Virus record (IMG/VR): IMGVR_UViG_3300025308_000347 | Location: 1 to 23,259 of that record | Reading direction: 5' to 3' (one strand) | DNA: 23,259 bases | Origin: a virus | In this document: piece after piece, positions 12,538 to 21,213 of the stretch | Layout: each line of letters opens with the position of its first letter | Numbering within the stretch: the stretch's first letter is position 1 | Notes under the pieces: model-generated | What the model saw: only the letters and a program-made list of their open reading frames with translations | Databases searched by the model: none | Told to the model about the DNA's origin: nothing | Translations under genes and position numbers: made by a program

Positions 12538-12569
12538 TTAAAAGACCGCCCCAGCTCGCGCCGGGGCGG
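12538..12569 (-). terminator. Intrinsic terminator after the protease-capsid gene
   Basis: On the minus strand CCGCCCC (12569-12563) pairs with GGGGCGG (12552-12546) across a 10-base loop, followed by TCTTTTAA. The seven-pair all-GC stem and the T-rich tail make a good, perhaps partly efficient, terminator, 34 bases past the capsid stop. Genes beyond it are still in the same direction and have no obvious promoter, so some read-through is needed. Confidence 0.8.
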
Positions 12570-12602: not shown

Positions 12603-14603
12603 TTACCGGTCGACCCGCGCCGCACCGCCGTACAGCACGATGCTGGTGATGCCGGCCTTGAGCGGGCTCGGGGTGTGCAGGAACATGAACTGGTCGCCAT
12701 AGGCTTCCTTCTTGCCGGTGAAGCGGCCGTTGGAATCCTTCTGGTCCTGCAATTGGCCCATGGTCCATGCCTTGGCCATGCGGTAGCGGGTGAGCCCGCG
12801 CTCGCCGATCAGCACGCGGGTGTCGCCCATCGCCAGGCCGGGGGCGTAGCCCTTGTAGTTCGCCACGCCCTTGACCACGCCCAGGTTGCCCATGCTGTCG
12901 AGGTTCGTGCCGTTCCGGGCGCCGGACTCGATGAAGGCTTGCGCCTGCTCGATGGTGGTCATCACCGTGCCCGACATCAGGCCGAAGTTGCAGGCATGGA
13001 AGCGCTGATCCTCGATCACCGATTTGCGCAGGCCGTAGCGGTACAGAAAGGTGTTCCAGAACAGATCGGTGGCCACTGAGCCCTGGTCGGTGTCGAACTT
13101 GTACACGTTGGTGGTGTAGCTGTAGGACAACACAATGGCATGCGTGTTGGTCGGCGCGACCGCGGCGCCCAGCTCGCTGACGAAGCTGACCTCGCCCAGG
13201 TTGTAGTCGATCGAGTAGTACAGTCCGCCGGCCTGCGTGCCGGTGCCGTCGTACTCGCTGATCGTCACGGCGTTGCTCTTGACCACCACCGGGTAGAGCG
13301 TGCTGCCGACCTGGCTGCCCTGCATGTCGTAGATCTTCTTCGGCCGCACGATCGGGAAGCTGGTCGAGCAGAAGATGGTCTTGGTGCCGTCGGCCGTGGC
13401 CGTGGCTTCGTTGGTCACGGCGGTGACGGCGTACTGGTCGGAGGCGTCGAGCTGCTCGTTGAAGATCAGGCGCTCGGTGTCTTCGCCGACGATGCGGATG
13501 GCGTTGCGGGCGTTTTCGCCGAGTACGTCCCAGTTGAGCTGGCCGTTGCTGGTGAGGTAGCGCAGTTCGTCGCTGACTTCGAAGGCCAGCTTCTGCGGCA
13601 CGATGTAGGCCGTGTCCATCGCCTGCTTGACGCCGGCGCGGGCGATCGCCTGGCCTTCGTACTTGCGGGTGCTGTCGCGGCTGCCGGCGGTGGTGTCACG
13701 GTAGCTGTAGGGGATCTGGTGCGTGGCGGAGAACGGCGCGGTACCGGAATCGACGAACTGCATGCCGACCAGGCCATACAGCGCCTCGCGGATCACGGTG
13801 CGCTCGAAAGTGGCCGGTACCGAGACATCCGAGACCAGGCCGTCGCCGCCGGCGAGCATGATGTGCTCGCGGTGCAGGCGGTGCCCGTGCTCGGCGTCGA
13901 AGGCCGCCAGCACTTGCTCGGCCAGCACCCGATTGGGTTCCTGCAGCGCGCCGTTGGTGGCGCGAAAGCGTATGGCGTCGCTGCGGCCGGTGATGCCGAG
14001 GCGGCGGTCTGCGGCTTCCTGCAGCGCCTTGACCTCGTTGCCGGAATCGACGCTGATGTGCGCGTTGCCGGCGAACTGAAAGCCCATGCCGGAGAGCTTG
14101 CGCGCGGCCTGCAGGCGGTTGCCCATGCTGATCTGCGAGGCAGCGAGCTTACCCACCTGCTCGGGCGTCATGTCGGCGGTGACCAGATCGGCGACGGACT
14201 CGGTGAGTTCCTTGCGCAGGGTGTCGTCGAAGTCCTTGACGGCGGTGATCGTGTCGGTGAGCAGCTTGATGTTGGCGGCGCGACTGGTTTCAGCGGCGGT
14301 GCGTTCATCGTGCAGGCGCTTGGCTTCGGCGTGCATCAACTGGCGCACGTCGTCTTCGGATAGCGTCTTGCCGGGGGCGACAGCGGGTAGCTTTATGTCG
14401 AGCGTCACCACCTGGCTGCCGATCTGCGCGGCGAGCTGTTTGCCGGATTCTTCGAAGGAGGCGATCAGCAGCTTGGCCTGCGCTTCGTCGGTGACGGATT
14501 CCAGCGCCTTGGTGGCGGCGCCGGCGAGAGCTGCAATGACGGGCTCGGCCAGCTTGAAGCTGCCGAGGGCGGCGGTCAGGGCCGCAATGAGAGTTTTCCA
14601 CAT
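12603..14603 (-). CDS. Nested scaffold-capsid product from internal in-frame start
   Basis: Inside the fusion, Met191 (MWKTLIAALTAALGSFKLAE) has a full AGGAGG eight bases upstream. Translation from there would give a 666-residue scaffold plus capsid protein without the protease, similar in principle to lambda C/Nu3 and Mu I/Z, where the scaffold starts inside the protease gene in the same frame. Here the nested product also contains the whole capsid. The site is stronger than that of the full-length start, so the nested form may be the main capsid precursor and the full-length form a minor protease-bearing one. Confidence 0.68.
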   Translation of the reverse strand: MWKTLIAALTAALGSFKLAEPVIAALAGAATKALESVTDEAQAKLLIASFEESGKQLAAQIGSQVVTLDIKLPAVAPGKTLSEDDVRQLMHAEAKRLHDERTAAETSRAANIKLLTDTITAVKDFDDTLRKELTESVADLVTADMTPEQVGKLAASQISMGNRLQAARKLSGMGFQFAGNAHISVDSGNEVKALQEAADRRLGITGRSDAIRFRATNGALQEPNRVLAEQVLAAFDAEHGHRLHREHIMLAGGDGLVSDVSVPATFERTVIREALYGLVGMQFVDSGTAPFSATHQIPYSYRDTTAGSRDSTRKYEGQAIARAGVKQAMDTAYIVPQKLAFEVSDELRYLTSNGQLNWDVLGENARNAIRIVGEDTERLIFNEQLDASDQYAVTAVTNEATATADGTKTIFCSTSFPIVRPKKIYDMQGSQVGSTLYPVVVKSNAVTISEYDGTGTQAGGLYYSIDYNLGEVSFVSELGAAVAPTNTHAIVLSYSYTTNVYKFDTDQGSVATDLFWNTFLYRYGLRKSVIEDQRFHACNFGLMSGTVMTTIEQAQAFIESGARNGTNLDSMGNLGVVKGVANYKGYAPGLAMGDTRVLIGERGLTRYRMAKAWTMGQLQDQKDSNGRFTGKKEAYGDQFMFLHTPSPLKAGITSIVLYGGAARVDR

Positions 14604-15173
14604 GGTAGTTACCTCCTGGGTTAATTCGGAAAGAAGCGTGGGGTGCACGAAGGTCGGCATGTCGCCGGAGGCTTCGGACAACTGAATCGGATCGAGTTTC
14701 TTGATGCAGGGCCGAATCACCAGGCCCGCGCCCAGCAGCACCGGGCCGTGTTTCTTGCCGGCCTCGTTGTCCTGCCAGTTCTCGTGATACTCGGCGCTGA
14801 GATAGCGGAAACCCTTCTCGCGGATGGCTGTCAGCCCGAGGGCCGTCCATTCGACCAGCGCACGCAACCGGTCACCGTCAGCGGAGAGTTTGAGAATCTT
14901 CCCGGCGGCGCCGCCGCTGGGGTTGTGGGCGACGTCGATGAACACGTCCTGGCCGAAGGTGCGCGCGTCGAAATTCGCCACCATCGAAAGCAGCATCGCC
15001 TTGGTGATGTCGAACTTGCCGTAGCGCGGATCGGAGAAGCTGCCAGTGCGGGTTACCGTCACCCAGCTCGTGGTCGCGCCTTCCTCCAGATTCACATGAA
15101 GGCCGGTGAGCGCACGCAGCACACCGGAATATTGCGCATCGAGTCGAATGGTCCTGGGCCTGCCCTGATTCAT
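12603..15173 (-). CDS. Protease - scaffold - major capsid fusion protein
   Basis: An 856-residue polypeptide combining three normally separate head functions. Residues ~25-170 match the Mu gpI-like protease family: QDVFIDVAHNPSGGAAGKIL with His83, the LVEWTALGLTAIREKGFRYLSAEY signature, and the closing LGAGLVIRPCIKKLDP. Residues ~191-390 are helical with coiled-coil stretches and resemble a scaffold or delta domain. From ~395 a major capsid protein follows (AEVSDEL-type helix, RHACNFGL region, ending SIVLYGGAARVDR). The chosen ATG has GAGGTG six bases upstream; an upstream in-frame ATG at 15236 adds 21 basic residues and has no such site. The protease presumably cuts itself and the scaffold away after assembly. 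An internal start is described separately. Confidence 0.88.
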   Translation of the reverse strand: MNQGRPRTIRLDAQYSGVLRALTGLHVNLEEGATTSWVTVTRTGSFSDPRYGKFDITKAMLLSMVANFDARTFGQDVFIDVAHNPSGGAAGKILKLSADGDRLRALVEWTALGLTAIREKGFRYLSAEYHENWQDNEAGKKHGPVLLGAGLVIRPCIKKLDPIQLSEASGDMPTFVHPTLLSELTQEVTTMWKTLIAALTAALGSFKLAEPVIAALAGAATKALESVTDEAQAKLLIASFEESGKQLAAQIGSQVVTLDIKLPAVAPGKTLSEDDVRQLMHAEAKRLHDERTAAETSRAANIKLLTDTITAVKDFDDTLRKELTESVADLVTADMTPEQVGKLAASQISMGNRLQAARKLSGMGFQFAGNAHISVDSGNEVKALQEAADRRLGITGRSDAIRFRATNGALQEPNRVLAEQVLAAFDAEHGHRLHREHIMLAGGDGLVSDVSVPATFERTVIREALYGLVGMQFVDSGTAPFSATHQIPYSYRDTTAGSRDSTRKYEGQAIARAGVKQAMDTAYIVPQKLAFEVSDELRYLTSNGQLNWDVLGENARNAIRIVGEDTERLIFNEQLDASDQYAVTAVTNEATATADGTKTIFCSTSFPIVRPKKIYDMQGSQVGSTLYPVVVKSNAVTISEYDGTGTQAGGLYYSIDYNLGEVSFVSELGAAVAPTNTHAIVLSYSYTTNVYKFDTDQGSVATDLFWNTFLYRYGLRKSVIEDQRFHACNFGLMSGTVMTTIEQAQAFIESGARNGTNLDSMGNLGVVKGVANYKGYAPGLAMGDTRVLIGERGLTRYRMAKAWTMGQLQDQKDSNGRFTGKKEAYGDQFMFLHTPSPLKAGITSIVLYGGAARVDR
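14612..14617 (-). promoter_or_regulatory. Internal AGGAGG ribosome binding site
   Basis: A perfect anti-16S complement lying within the codons for Gln-Glu-Val, eight bases before the in-frame ATG at 14603-14601. Such a site inside coding sequence in the right place is unlikely by chance and supports internal initiation of the scaffold-capsid product. Confidence 0.75.
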
Positions 15174-15189
15174 AGCCACCTCGCGAAAT

Positions 15190-15226
15190 GCGCGGCGGGC
15201 TCGGGAGCGAACCAATCCCGCCGCGC
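15190..15226 (-). promoter_or_regulatory. 10-bp GC hairpin in the leader of the protease-capsid gene
   Basis: GCGCGGCGGG (15190-15199) and CCCGCCGCGC (15217-15226) are exact inverted repeats, separated by 17 bases. The structure ends 16 bases before the ATG and leaves the GAGGTG site free. There is no T-run, so it is not a terminator. It could protect the capsid transcript from decay, or hold the leader open for ribosomes. Confidence 0.65.
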
Positions 15227-15307: not shown

Positions 15308-15634
15308 CTAATTCACGACGTATTGATCGAGATCAGTATCGTCGGCGAGAGCATCAGGCCCGGCCGTCGGGTACGCCTGCTGCAGCTCAGCGTCGAGCTG
15401 CCAGGACTGTCCCAGGAGAACCGCCATCTCGGCAGGACTCCGTAGCGGATCCTTGATGTCGAACGGCGTCGGGTACGGGTGTCCATTGACGTGTCCGATC
15501 TGCAGCGCACGTTCGCACATGTTGCGCACAATCCCGGCGCCGGCGCCGCGAAGATCGCCGGACTCCGGATCCCACTCGAACGCCAGCTCGACGTCGTGCT
15601 GTGTCTGTGGCTGCAGGGTAAATTTACGGTACAT
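15308..15634 (-). CDS. Small acidic protein directly after the MuF-peptidase gene
   Basis: A 108-residue acidic protein (MYRKFTLQPQTQHDVELAFEWD). The first part is beta-rich with acidic residues; the second half has NGHPYPTPFDIKDPLRSPAEMAVLL and a Trp-containing helix (GQSWQLDAELQQAYP). The start overlaps the MuF stop by 11 bases, so the two are coupled. No family is recognised. It may be a structural accessory protein. As the gene directly behind a MuF protein with a peptidase-like domain, it is also a candidate inhibitor of that domain. A GTCGC/GCGAC hairpin starts just at its stop codon. Confidence 0.75.
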   Translation of the reverse strand: MYRKFTLQPQTQHDVELAFEWDPESGDLRGAGAGIVRNMCERALQIGHVNGHPYPTPFDIKDPLRSPAEMAVLLGQSWQLDAELQQAYPTAGPDALADDTDLDQYVVN

Positions 15635-17477
15635 AACGATACAGTGCTCCGATTACCAGATTGAACATTTCACGATCATCCTTCAGCAGTTTTTCCAGGG
15701 TGCCCGGGTTGCCGCCCAGCACGCTTTCGAATGCCATGGTTAGGACTTCCATAGCGCCGTGCTTGCCGAGATACCCTGTCGATCGGGAGTAGATCTTGCC
15801 CTGGTAGGGGTTGATGTATTTGTCCTCCCTGGCTACTTCATTACGCCCATACGAGATTCCCGTCAAGCTGCGCAGGCTCTTGACCGGGTCGCCGGCTGTG
15901 CGGCGATGGTGAAGCTCCTGGAACAAATCGTCCAGATCGGGCAGGGCATGCTGCAGGCGATGGGCGTATTCATGCACGGCCGTGGTGTACCGGCCGGCAA
16001 CGATCATGCCGTCATTGCCATCCGCGGTGAAGCTGAAGCCCTTGTAATGGATCCGCTGTCCTGCCTTGGTTCCCGGCAGCGTTGACTGCCAGCCGCGGCC
16101 GGCCCCACCCTTGGCATAGAGCGGGCCGAAGGCGTCTGCGGCCTTGGTCCAGTCGTCCGGGAAAAGCCTGGATACGTTCCGCACCAGGTCGGCCCCGCGC
16201 CCGCCGCCGCGAACCTTTGCCTCGGCCGCTGTGGAGCGCACCAGGTTCAGATCCTTGAACAGCACCTCGGGCAGCCTGGCGGCCGTGTCGCCCATCGCCT
16301 GCGCTTTGGCGAGCAGCTCGTGGCCTTTGTCGGCCCCGAAGCCGATCAGCCCATCGAGGTCCAGCGGCCCCTTGGGTGGCGGTCGCGGCGGTGCCTTCGG
16401 TTTGGGTGCTACATAGCCGATGCGCTTTTGCACGGCCCGCCACGGTGCCCGGATCATGCCCTGGGTGAGCTTACCGGCGGCGAAGACTTCAGCTTTGCCC
16501 TTCCCTAGTACGCCCTGCCGCTGTGCCGGCGTGAGCCGTGCCAGGGCCTGCAGCGGGGTTTCCTTGCCAGCTTTGTCCTTGGCGCTGATCTCGTCCTTGA
16601 ATACGATTTCGACGAAGCTAAGGGTGTTCGGATGCGCCGGCCATGGGGTTTTTTCGCGCGAGGGATAGACTCCGGCTCCCAGTCCATGAAGGTTCTGCGT
16701 TGAGAGCAGGTCGCAGATATCAGCCTTCGGATGCGCCGGCGACAGAAGAAAGCGCCAGCCACCGAAATCAGGATGGTCTTCGCCGCCCATCATGTAGGCC
16801 TCGCCGTGGGCACGGTTGATCTCGGTGCGCATCAAGCGCATGGCGTTGTCCAGGGCGCTACCCTCACCCGTCAGCAGCGGATCCGTGGCGCCCCTGATCA
16901 GCTTGCGGGTGGCCGACGACTGCATGCGGTCCTGGATGTCGATAGGTACCGGGTCGCCGCGGGAAAGGAATTCCCGTGCCGCCTGGGCGGCGCTCTGCCC
17001 CTGAATGATCGCGCTCTCAATCGCATTGACCACAGCGTCGCGTGCGCCGCGGTCAATGCGCCAGATCCGGTCGGAGAGCTGCAGACCGTCGGCGGCCACG
17101 AAGTTGCGCACGAAGCGCAGGGCGTCCTCGGAAACCCGCATCGAGTCCAGGCTGGAGACCACGGCACCGGTATCCATCACCGAGCCCAGCACCGGTCGCG
17201 CGCCGTAATCTGCCGCCTTGGCCATCGCCTCGTTCAGCAACGCGTCACGCTCGGTGGTCAGGCGCTGCATGATCCCCTGCACCTGACCGAGCAGCTGCTG
17301 CAGCTCCTGCAGCGCCAGATTATCGTCAGGGCCGCTGTGGTTTCGGATCCGCGTGGCGATTTCGCCGGCCTGGGTCTTGTAAAGGTCGATCAGGGCCTGC
17401 TGCGTCTCGGCGTCGAGCTTCTCGATGGCTCGCTGCCCGATCAGCGTGGCACGCTTGATCTGGGCGCGGGTTTTCAT
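15624..17477 (-). CDS. MuF-family head morphogenesis protein with C-terminal HExxH peptidase-like domain
   Basis: A 617-residue minor head protein. The MuF core lies at about 205-295: LMRTEINRAHGEAYMMGGE, WRFLLSPAHPKADICDLL, and PWPAHPNT. A proline-rich linker (KPKAPPRPPPKGP, 359-371) leads to an extra C-terminal part. There, ~430-617 contains TTAVHEYAHRLQH, so His502, Glu503 and His506 form a zinc-peptidase HExxH site; Glu577 in KHGAMEVLTMAFE is the likely third ligand, with Glu584 as the alternative. MuF proteins carried in the virion are often fused to toxin-like enzyme domains in temperate phages, so this one may be injected with the DNA. It may instead process virion proteins. Portal stop and this start overlap as ATGA. 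Confidence 0.9.
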   Translation of the reverse strand: MKTRAQIKRATLIGQRAIEKLDAETQQALIDLYKTQAGEIATRIRNHSGPDDNLALQELQQLLGQVQGIMQRLTTERDALLNEAMAKAADYGARPVLGSVMDTGAVVSSLDSMRVSEDALRFVRNFVAADGLQLSDRIWRIDRGARDAVVNAIESAIIQGQSAAQAAREFLSRGDPVPIDIQDRMQSSATRKLIRGATDPLLTGEGSALDNAMRLMRTEINRAHGEAYMMGGEDHPDFGGWRFLLSPAHPKADICDLLSTQNLHGLGAGVYPSREKTPWPAHPNTLSFVEIVFKDEISAKDKAGKETPLQALARLTPAQRQGVLGKGKAEVFAAGKLTQGMIRAPWRAVQKRIGYVAPKPKAPPRPPPKGPLDLDGLIGFGADKGHELLAKAQAMGDTAARLPEVLFKDLNLVRSTAAEAKVRGGGRGADLVRNVSRLFPDDWTKAADAFGPLYAKGGAGRGWQSTLPGTKAGQRIHYKGFSFTADGNDGMIVAGRYTTAVHEYAHRLQHALPDLDDLFQELHHRRTAGDPVKSLRSLTGISYGRNEVAREDKYINPYQGKIYSRSTGYLGKHGAMEVLTMAFESVLGGNPGTLEKLLKDDREMFNLVIGALYRYVP

Positions 17478-19106: not shown

Positions 19107-19546
19107 GGTGGGTCGATCGCCTTCGACCAGACATTCGCATCCCATCCCTCGATGACGTAGCGCTCGAACTTCCTCGCCATTGATGGGGACATCAAATACC
19201 CGTTTTCTTCCTTTGAATATTTCTCGTTCGTCATCACAGAAACCAAACGCCCGGCACGTGTCGCCGTTGCAGCACCATTGAACCTAGTGCGCACCACTAC
19301 AGCACCTTTTGTGTGTTTGGCATTGCTGAACGTAAAGGGAGCGTCTGGGGTGCCACCTTTGATTTCCCAATCACCTTTAGATGGGATCTGCATTTCTGCC
19401 TTCTTCGGCTTCTGCTTATCTTTTGCTGGGTCGGCGCCTCCTCCGGCCCACTGCCCACCATCCGGTGATCCTGCTGGATCGCGCGGCTGGTTCGGGTCGT
19501 ATCCGGAGAGACGAAAGAGGTCTTCGATGTAAAGGGGGGTTTTCAT
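19103..19546 (-). CDS. AT-richer orphan protein with a toxin-linker-like N-terminal motif
   Basis: A 147-residue protein (MKTPLYIEDLFRLSGYDPNQ). The N-terminal YDPNQPRDPAGSPDGGQWAG resembles the Asp-Pro/Gly-Gln-Trp motif often seen in phage head proteins just before variable, toxin-like or accessory domains. A lysine-rich linker (AKDKQKPKKAEMQ) follows, then an ~85-residue domain (WEIKGGTPDAPFTFS, then RTRFNGAATATRAG and RYVIEGWDANVWSKAID) that I cannot assign. Bases ~19150-19400 are clearly richer in A/T than the neighbours, suggesting transfer. The start overlaps the terminase stop as ATGA, so it is wired into the late operon. Confidence 0.75.
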   Translation of the reverse strand: MKTPLYIEDLFRLSGYDPNQPRDPAGSPDGGQWAGGGADPAKDKQKPKKAEMQIPSKGDWEIKGGTPDAPFTFSNAKHTKGAVVVRTRFNGAATATRAGRLVSVMTNEKYSKEENGYLMSPSMARKFERYVIEGWDANVWSKAIDPP

Positions 19547-21213
19547 GCGGCAATCCTTTCTGGTTCGCCCAGCAGCTGTTCGCGCGTGACGCGGCGATGC
19601 TCGATCACCGCCGGGCCGAAGAGTTCGATGCCGCGCGTGGCAAGTGCCCAGGTGGCGGCGCAGTCGGCGTCGAACAGGTCGTCGCCGATCTTCGGATCGG
19701 CCATCTTGAAGCTGGAGTAATCGGCCTTGGTGGCCTCGGCCTTGATGTTGGCCAGTTGGCGTGTGTAGCTCCGCCAGTCGGCCAGCGCGTCGGCGGACCG
19801 CTCCAGGCGAATCAGCGGAACTTCGTGCAGCCGGCCGTTGGCGCTGTCGGCCACCACCTCGGTGCCGTCGTCGAAATACGCGATCGCGGCCTGGCCGTTG
19901 TGGAAAGCGGTGCGCAGCGCGCTGGCCATGCTGTGCTTGACGTGGCCCTGGAAGCGGATCGGGGCGAAGGGCCACTGGTCCCAGGTGCTGGCGGTGCTCT
20001 CGCCCTCGCCGATGGTGCGCCGGTCGACATCGACCAGGCCGGCGGCAAAGAGCCGGTCGTTGAGACTGGTGAGCATACCCACGCCGTAGGCGTCGCCCAT
20101 CGCCACGTCGGGTCGGAAATACTCCCAGAATCCGTGCAGGTCCAGCTCGACCACCTTGTCGTCGGTGCCGGGCGGCCAGGTCTTCACGAACACGGTGCAG
20201 ATGAAGTTGCCAATCTGCTCCCTCACCACCAGGGCGGAGCGTGACGCGGTGAGGCTTTCGCCGTGGCCGGAATGGTCATAACCAAAAGCGACCAGGCCGC
20301 GCTTCTTGTAGCGCATGCCGGGCATCGGTTCCGCCGGCGCCAGGTTGGCGGCCAGACCGACCGCCATGGCGCGGCGAATGTATTTTTCCCAGATCCAGTT
20401 CTGGCTGGCGACGTTCTTGCACAGGAACTGGCGGATGTACTCGGCCTCGGACATCTGCCCGCGCATGTCGAGCATGAAGCTCTCATTAAGGATCCCAAGC
20501 TCGATGCCGAGATAGACATCAACCGCCGGCAGCAGGTGGTAACTGCCTGAATCGATCAGGCCCTGCAGCACGTCGGCGCCCTTGAAGACGCCGGTGATCC
20601 GTATCTGCGGACTGAATGAGGCGGTTCCGCGATCGACACCAAGCCGACGGGCCGACCCCAGCATGGGCAGGAAGCGCGACGTCAGCCGGTCGGCCGGCAT
20701 GTCGTCGGTCTCCTCCAACGACGCCGCGGTGAGCGAATCGCCGTCAATCTGCGCCATGATGCCGTAGGCCGCGGCGCCAGATTGGTTGGCGAACTGGTAG
20801 CGGGTGTCGGAAATCTGCTCCCGTCCCGACTTGTAGGCAATGAATGCCTTCAGCATCTCCGAGCGACGGATCGCGTCCAGGTGATAGTTAAGGTTGGTCT
20901 GCGACTGCTGCTGTCGCGGTGCGACGATGCCGACCGTCTGGTGCGGCATGGTGGCGTTGTGCTCAAGGAGGTACATTTCCTTGACCGCCGTCTTGCCCGT
21001 CCGCCGGCAGGACACGTCGACCGTATTTGGGTGCTGGTCCATCTCGATCATCTTCAGCACTTGCACCGGGTCCAGCTCGACGTTGTGCACGTGTTTATGC
21101 CACAGCCCGTGCAGGCGCATCCCCGTCTCCGGGTCCGCTCGGGCGTATTTCATGATCGCCTGCTCGGCCCGGTTGGCAACGGCGACACGATCGGAGCGTG
21201 AGATGCGAGTCAC
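19543..21213 (-). CDS. Terminase large subunit
   Basis: A 556-residue packaging motor. The ATPase part has the Walker A motif SCRRTGKT at 68-75 and an acidic Walker B-like LEETDD at 166-171. The nuclease part shows the RNase H-like aspartates: Asp313 in VAFGYDHSG, Asp374 in AMGDAYGVG, and Asp511/512 or Asp515/517 in KIGDDLFDADCAATWALA. The start codon is GTG, with GAGGAG nine bases upstream. The packaging mode (cos or pac) cannot be read from this alone. The gene overlaps the AT-richer orphan gene by ATGA. Confidence 0.94.
   Translation of the reverse strand: MTRISRSDRVAVANRAEQAIMKYARADPETGMRLHGLWHKHVHNVELDPVQVLKMIEMDQHPNTVDVSCRRTGKTAVKEMYLLEHNATMPHQTVGIVAPRQQQSQTNLNYHLDAIRRSEMLKAFIAYKSGREQISDTRYQFANQSGAAAYGIMAQIDGDSLTAASLEETDDMPADRLTSRFLPMLGSARRLGVDRGTASFSPQIRITGVFKGADVLQGLIDSGSYHLLPAVDVYLGIELGILNESFMLDMRGQMSEAEYIRQFLCKNVASQNWIWEKYIRRAMAVGLAANLAPAEPMPGMRYKKRGLVAFGYDHSGHGESLTASRSALVVREQIGNFICTVFVKTWPPGTDDKVVELDLHGFWEYFRPDVAMGDAYGVGMLTSLNDRLFAAGLVDVDRRTIGEGESTASTWDQWPFAPIRFQGHVKHSMASALRTAFHNGQAAIAYFDDGTEVVADSANGRLHEVPLIRLERSADALADWRSYTRQLANIKAEATKADYSSFKMADPKIGDDLFDADCAATWALATRGIELFGPAVIEHRRVTREQLLGEPERIAA

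What the first reader, a model, noticed from the sequence alone, without database searches (positions are those of the whole stretch)
12603..15173. Protease, scaffold and major capsid joined in one reading frame, with an internal start for the capsid part
One 856-codon frame holds a Mu gpI-like protease, a helical scaffold-like part and the capsid. At codon 191 a perfect AGGAGG lies eight bases before an in-frame ATG, so two products are expected: a full-length protease-bearing form and a 666-residue scaffold-capsid form. Lambda and Mu nest the scaffold inside the protease gene, but the capsid is normally a separate gene. This arrangement would set the protease to capsid ratio by choice of start codon and builds the protease into the capsid lattice.
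Basis: partly seen in the sequence, partly recalled or inferred. Interest (0 to 1): 0.6.

Follow-up and report, generated by a model that had tools for sequence, protein, structure and literature searches.

The report
Two-start protease-scaffold-capsid phage gene
One phage gene makes a protein-cutting enzyme, an internal scaffold and the virus shell as a single chain, and a second start signal inside it, kept in nearly every relative examined, almost certainly also makes the shell without the enzyme, which would keep the enzyme a minority of the building blocks.

Summary
It is neither a sequencing error nor peculiar to this contig. Of 73 further loci fetched by a capsid-anchored search, 62 have protease and capsid in the same frame, 7 run off the contig, and none is split at the junction. 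The parts are a Mu-like prophage protease (PF10123), a helical scaffold-like region and an HK97-fold capsid (Foldseek probability 1.0).

The internal start is strongly supported. In 76 non-redundant relatives (median identity 44%), 75 keep an in-frame ATG at the junction and the 76th has GTG. 68 have a Shine-Dalgarno (SD)+ATG there, against 1.2% per bin elsewhere. The Met is invariant amid variable neighbours, the mRNA is less structured in 75/75, and the SD exceeds what codon choice explains.

The fusion itself is not new: Gifsy-2's tripartite capsid gene and S78-protease/capsid fusions are known. What seems undocumented is that the internal start recurs at the junction in fusions with three other protease types: ClpP (19/19), T4 gp21-like S77 (12/12 and 4/4) and HK97-type S78 (23/25).

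Best reading: a minor full-length form carries the protease into a shell built mainly from the 666-residue form. The two proteins and their ratio are inferred, not shown.

The parts
12603..15173 (-). Full-length frame: protease-scaffold-capsid, 856 aa, ATG at 15173, TAA at 12605-12603
   Evidence: same single frame in relatives
14703..15071 (-). Protease domain, residues about 35-157 (Mu gpI-like, PF10123)
   Evidence: 43.8 bits, cut-off 25.2; phrog_328; model pLDDT about 80-93; H83, S126, E137 invariant in 67 sequences
15176..15198 (-). Predicted hairpin covering the GAGG (15182-15179) of the full-length start; would weaken initiation of the protease-bearing form
   Evidence: fold (51-nt MFE -16.2 against -7.7 at the internal start); prediction only, conservation of this particular hairpin not tested
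14612..14617 (-). Internal Shine-Dalgarno AGGAGG, dG -11.6 to anti-SD
   Evidence: sequence; energy and conservation
14601..14603 (-). Internal start codon ATG (codon 191); begins the 666-residue scaffold-capsid form
   Evidence: start codon in 76/76 non-redundant relatives (75 ATG, 1 GTG)
14049..14603 (-). Helical scaffold-like region, residues about 191-375
   Evidence: AlphaFold2 helices 178-205, 210-224, 230-251, 273-310, 317-330, 337-362
12606..13991 (-). Major capsid part as modelled, residues 395-856; HK97-fold core from about 454
   Evidence: all listed Foldseek hits (top 50) are tailed-phage, satellite or tailed archaeal-virus capsid proteins, including 1ohg HK97
12546..12569 (-). G+C-rich hairpin followed by TCTTTT just downstream of the stop; possible terminator or mRNA 3' end
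   Evidence: 2 found, 2.7 expected by chance in shuffles, so weak

Best explanation
The gene is a tripartite head gene with two translation starts. Initiation at 15173 gives an 856-residue protease-scaffold-capsid chain. Initiation at the internal ATG at 14603, with its own perfect SD in a weakly structured stretch of mRNA, gives a 666-residue scaffold-capsid chain, like HK97 gp5 with its attached scaffold domain. The internal start is the stronger one, so most subunits lack the protease and a minority carry it into the procapsid through their own capsid domain. After assembly the protease digests the scaffold and presumably frees itself, as in other tailed phages. Shown here: the frame, the domains, the internal start and its conservation. 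Inferred: that both proteins are made, their ratio, co-assembly and the cleavage order.
For: Single frame in relatives found from the protease end and from the capsid end (62 same frame, 7 contig ends, 0 split at the junction). In-frame ATG at the junction in 75/76 non-redundant genes and GTG in the last; SD+ATG in 68/76 against a mean 1.2% (maximum 7.9%) in other bins. The junction ATG has the strongest SD of about 17 interior ATGs in 56/76 and ranks second in 14 more. SD stronger than synonymous-codon randomisation, mean -6.7 against -4.5 kcal/mol, Wilcoxon 1.5e-11. Met invariant while neighbours vary by 2.0-3.6 bits; SD spacing 5-11; 51-nt folding energy -5.2 against -13.6 for the gene, weaker in 75/75; 44% against 61% G+C after the ATG. 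The internal site beats the N-terminal site in SD (49/71) and openness (58/71). No other protease or capsid match among the window proteins scanned. Same feature at the junction in fusions with ClpP (19/19), S77 (12/12 with 5 GTG, and 4/4) and S78 (23/25) proteases.
Against: No protein-level data. SD strength and mRNA openness predict initiation only roughly, and in about a third of relatives the N-terminal SD is the stronger, so the ratio may differ among phages. Relatives share ancestry, so counts are not independent, and the synonymous test is significant in aggregate rather than gene by gene. Glu at -4 is common and alone makes GAG likely. The junction site was chosen as the best SD among ATGs within 20 residues, which favours it somewhat.
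Confidence: 0.87

Rival explanations
1. Single-product gene: all subunits carry the protease and the internal SD/ATG is not used; SD-like sequence merely pauses ribosomes after the protease domain has been made.
For: Fully fused subunits could in principle assemble, and the protease would be cleaved off. Internal SD-like sequences have been argued to slow ribosomes (general knowledge).
Against: A pause site needs no start codon. Here a start codon is kept at the junction in 76/76 genes with the SD core 5-11 bases upstream where one is found (70/75), Met is the only invariant residue in a variable linker, and GTG replaces ATG in one gene and in 5 of 12 Emery relatives. Loss of mRNA structure around it is typical of start sites.
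Confidence: 0.06
2. Fusion scar: protease and scaffold-capsid were separate genes, the stop codon was lost, and the old ribosome-binding site and start survive as relics.
For: It explains the origin of an SD+ATG exactly at the domain junction, and may well be how it arose.
Against: A non-functional relic would not persist across genes with median 44% and minimum 30% identity while the linker residues turn over, nor stay stronger than codon randomisation. So it may be the origin but not the present state.
Confidence: 0.04
3. Sequencing or assembly error removed a stop between two genes.
For: None found.
Against: Independent contigs, MAGs and an isolated phage (Microcystis phage yong1, 40% identity over the full length) share the frame.
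Confidence: 0.01
4. The internal start is real but serves mainly to supply free scaffold-capsid early or in a fixed order, with the protease later separated from the chain by self-cleavage in the low-confidence linker (residues 158-176), so that timing rather than ratio is regulated.
For: The linker between protease and junction is poorly predicted (pLDDT 34-62) and variable. Self-cleavage is usual for these proteases (general knowledge).
Against: Both products come from one mRNA, so timing control is less direct than ratio control. It is not exclusive of the best explanation.
Confidence: 0.15

Closest known systems
Salmonella phage Gifsy-2 tripartite capsid gene (Effantin et al. 2010, Virology 402:355; title seen via PMC8538268, paper itself not held)
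   Same: One frame with N-terminal protease, middle region and C-terminal HK97-type capsid; SD+ATG at the junction (ATG221) in 19/19 non-redundant relatives
   Different: Protease is ClpP-type (PF00574) and the capsid is PF25209; neither is found in the window protein. I could not check whether that paper mentions an internal start.
HK97-type S78 (U35) protease-capsid fusions, e.g. Pseudomonas phage PPpW-3 and Escherichia phage ep3
   Same: Protease and capsid in one gene, one record annotated as 'major capsid protein and peptidase U35'; internal SD+ATG at the junction in 23/25 related fusions
   Different: Unrelated protease and capsid families (PF04586, PF05065)
Brevibacillus phage Emery gp6 and Virus Rctr41k 'putative phage capsid protein and protease'
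   Same: One-frame fusion; capsid and scaffold distantly similar (23-28% identity); strong SD+start at the junction in 12/12 and 4/4 relatives
   Different: Protease resembles T4 gp21 (S77, PF03420; Emery only weakly, below the cut-off), and is longer
Lambda C/Nu3 and Mu I/Z nested genes
   Same: Internal in-frame start in the protease gene gives a scaffold without protease (general knowledge; overlapping C/nu3 noted in PMC11739229)
   Different: There the scaffold frame ends before the capsid, which is a separate gene
HK97 gp5 (scaffold domain attached to the capsid; PMC10275583)
   Same: The predicted 666-residue form has the same scaffold-capsid layout and fold
   Different: HK97 makes its protease from a separate gene

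Membership tests
Tripartite (protease-scaffold-capsid) head genes, Gifsy-2 type in the broad sense | Protease, scaffold-like and capsid parts in one uninterrupted frame | tested here: met
Tripartite (protease-scaffold-capsid) head genes, Gifsy-2 type in the strict sense | ClpP-type protease and PF25209 capsid | tested here: not met
   Only PF10123 matches the window protein; Gifsy-2 matches PF00574 and PF25209
Mu-like prophage protease family (PF10123) | Curated profile score above the gathering cut-off | tested here: met
   43.8 bits against 25.2; relatives also above it
Mu-like prophage protease family (PF10123) | Catalytic residues present and active | tested here: inconclusive
   H83, S126, E137 invariant in 67 sequences, but no catalytic assignment or activity test
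HK97-fold major capsid proteins | HK97 fold | tested here: met
   AlphaFold2 pLDDT 81, pTM 0.79; Foldseek prob 1.00 to HK97-fold capsids, target-normalised TM about 0.46-0.61 for most
Nested protease/scaffold genes (lambda C/Nu3, Mu I/Z) | Conserved internal SD plus in-frame start at the protease-scaffold junction | tested here: met
Nested protease/scaffold genes (lambda C/Nu3, Mu I/Z) | Second protein shown to be made | not testable with these tools
   needs proteomics or ribosome profiling

The most novel reading that the evidence does not exclude
A general rule for tailed phages: whenever the maturation protease is fused to the capsid protein, whatever the protease family, selection keeps an internal start at the junction, so that protease-bearing subunits stay a minority. 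It would have arisen independently at least three or four times, because a shell in which every subunit carries a protease is not viable.
Probability: 0.6. Interest if true: 0.7.

Novelty: new variant of a known kind. Interest (0 to 1): 0.55.

Why it matters
Protease-capsid fusion genes are usually annotated as one 'major capsid protein' or 'hypothetical protein' with one start, and they raise an old question: how a phage avoids putting a protease on each of several hundred subunits. A conserved internal start answers it, predicts a second abundant protein in many annotated phages (including E. coli and Salmonella phages that are easy to grow) and gives the correct N-terminus for capsid expression, cryo-EM and mass spectrometry. 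It also shows the lambda-style nested start and the HK97-style scaffold-capsid fusion combined in one gene.

Tried and rejected
NCBIfam has no model for it. The first viral scan with the single protein found only two relatives; the alignment scans found 80 kept of 117 and 80 kept of 225. Exceptions to the single frame were read: L151 and L143 have stops in the scaffold, downstream of the internal ATG; L134 and L109 have unrelated or scrambled 5' sequence; L022 is frameshifted inside the protease. None is a split gene. Five Emery relatives first looked like exceptions but use GTG after the same SD. Rfam and tRNA scans of the window were empty. Ten literature searches turned up no report of an internal start in such fusions; the Gifsy-2 paper is not held, so prior mention cannot be excluded.

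Full report
OBSERVATION. The finding gives no strand; on the + strand 12603-15173 is full of stops. On the minus strand it is one frame of 856 codons from ATG at 15173 to TAA at 12605-12603. AGGAGG at 14617-14612 is followed after eight bases by ATG at 14603-14601, codon 191. The window is a 23,259-base IMG/VR virus record. Order on the minus strand: a weak terminase match (21213-19546), portal (18877-17477), Mu F-like minor head protein (17477-15627), the fused gene, then neck, tape measure and tail genes. No other protease or capsid match was found among the window proteins scanned; phrog_595, a family named head maturation protease, matches the minor head protein only in its head-morphogenesis part.

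PARTS. Residues 53-297 match Mu-like_Pro (PF10123, 43.8 bits, cut-off 25.2) and residues 27-256 match the PHROG of head maturation proteases. AlphaFold2 on 67 aligned relatives gives a compact domain at about 35-157, a poorly predicted linker at 158-176, helices to 362, then the capsid. The capsid part (395-856) has pLDDT 81 and pTM 0.79. All listed Foldseek matches are HK97-fold capsid proteins with probability 1.00, including HK97 itself, although no sequence match exists in PDB.

NOT AN ERROR. An isolated phage (Microcystis phage yong1) encodes the same fusion at 40% identity over the full length. Three MAG contigs at 58-76% do too. An alignment scan of viral contigs gave 80 loci; the full-length matches are one open frame, apart from one frameshift inside the protease, L022. 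Because that scan used protease motifs, I repeated it from the capsid side. Of 73 further loci, 62 have protease and capsid in the same frame, 7 run off the contig, and 4 are decayed or chimeric. None is split at the junction. Some of these loci are the same contigs seen again from the other end, so the two scans are not fully independent.

THE INTERNAL START. After removing sequences at or above 90% identity, 76 genes remained, with median pairwise identity 44% and minimum 30%. An in-frame ATG lies at the junction in 75; the remaining one (L052) has GTG after AAAGGG. SD (anti-SD energy at or below -5) plus ATG occurs in 68/76 at this bin, against a mean 1.2% and maximum 7.9% over 82 other bins. 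It is the strongest interior SD-ATG in 56 genes and second in 14. The methionine is invariant while residues on either side vary (2.0-3.6 bits), an SD core lies 5-11 bases upstream in 70 of 75, the 51-nt region is less structured than the gene average in 75/75 (-5.2 against -13.6 kcal/mol), and the first eight codons are A+T-richer. Randomising synonymous codons with each gene's own usage gives a weaker SD (-4.5 against -6.7; Wilcoxon 1.5e-11). These counts share ancestry and are not independent trials, but divergence is high enough that an unused site would have decayed.

RATIO. Compared with the best candidate N-terminal start, the internal site has the better SD in 49/71 and is more open in 58/71. 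In the window the full-length SD lies in a predicted hairpin (51-nt MFE -16.2) and the internal region is less structured (-7.7). This suggests, but does not show, that the 666-residue form predominates.

OTHER FUSION FAMILIES. The same test was applied to fusions with other proteases. Gifsy-2 (ClpP-type): SD+ATG221 in 19/19 non-redundant relatives; the next strongest internal bin has 10/19, and the amino acids there are themselves conserved, so this case is less clean. Brevibacillus phage Emery (weak match to S77): AGGAGG or GGGAG plus a start in 12/12, five of them GTG; these were not reduced for redundancy. Virus Rctr41k (S77): 4/4 that cover the junction. S78-capsid fusions: 23/25 non-redundant within a 35-residue window, because the linker aligns poorly. 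So the internal start accompanies fusion across four protease types. The queries were fused proteins, so this says nothing about how common fusion is.

KNOWN AND NEW. Fusion of protease, scaffold and capsid is known (Gifsy-2, Effantin et al. 2010, title via PMC8538268; S78/U35 fusions in many phage records). Nested starts are known for lambda C/Nu3 and Mu I/Z (general knowledge). Attachment of the scaffold to the capsid is known for HK97 (PMC10275583). I found no report of an internal start in the fused genes, but the library holds only open-licence papers. I therefore call it a new variant of a known kind.

LIMITS. Production of two proteins, their ratio, co-assembly and the cleavage sites are inferred. 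The proposed mature N-terminus near 390-400 is untested.

Noticed in passing
window 12546-12569, minus strand: G+C-rich 10-bp hairpin followed by TCTTTT just after the capsid stop, possibly a terminator or a stabilising mRNA 3' end that would set the capsid gene apart from the genes downstream.
   Followed up: no
window 15627-17477, minus strand: Mu F-like minor head protein (617 aa) has a separate C-terminal part (about 486-612) that matches C-termini of several other minor head proteins in PHROGs but no Pfam family.
   Followed up: no
L003 and its relatives L251, L252, L254, L255, L256: In the Emery family five relatives use GTG instead of ATG after a perfect AGGAGG at the protease-scaffold junction.
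   Followed up: yes
L151 about 4498, L143 about 1192: Two relatives have an in-frame stop in the scaffold part, downstream of the internal ATG; both look like decay or sequence errors (L143 also breaks in the capsid).
   Followed up: partly
L002 (Microcystis phage yong1) 19717-19950 and 20001-22547: In the public record a 234-base gene is annotated 'major head protein' while the fused capsid gene next to it is called 'hypothetical protein'; likely misannotation.
   Followed up: partly
L088 22471-24561 (Gifsy-2): The well-known Gifsy-2 tripartite capsid gene has GAGGAG nine bases before ATG221 at the ClpP-scaffold junction, and SD+ATG there is kept in 19/19 non-redundant relatives.
   Followed up: yes
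window 19546-21213, minus strand: Likely large terminase by position and size, but it has only a weak PHROG match (E 0.002) and no Pfam match: a divergent terminase.
   Followed up: no
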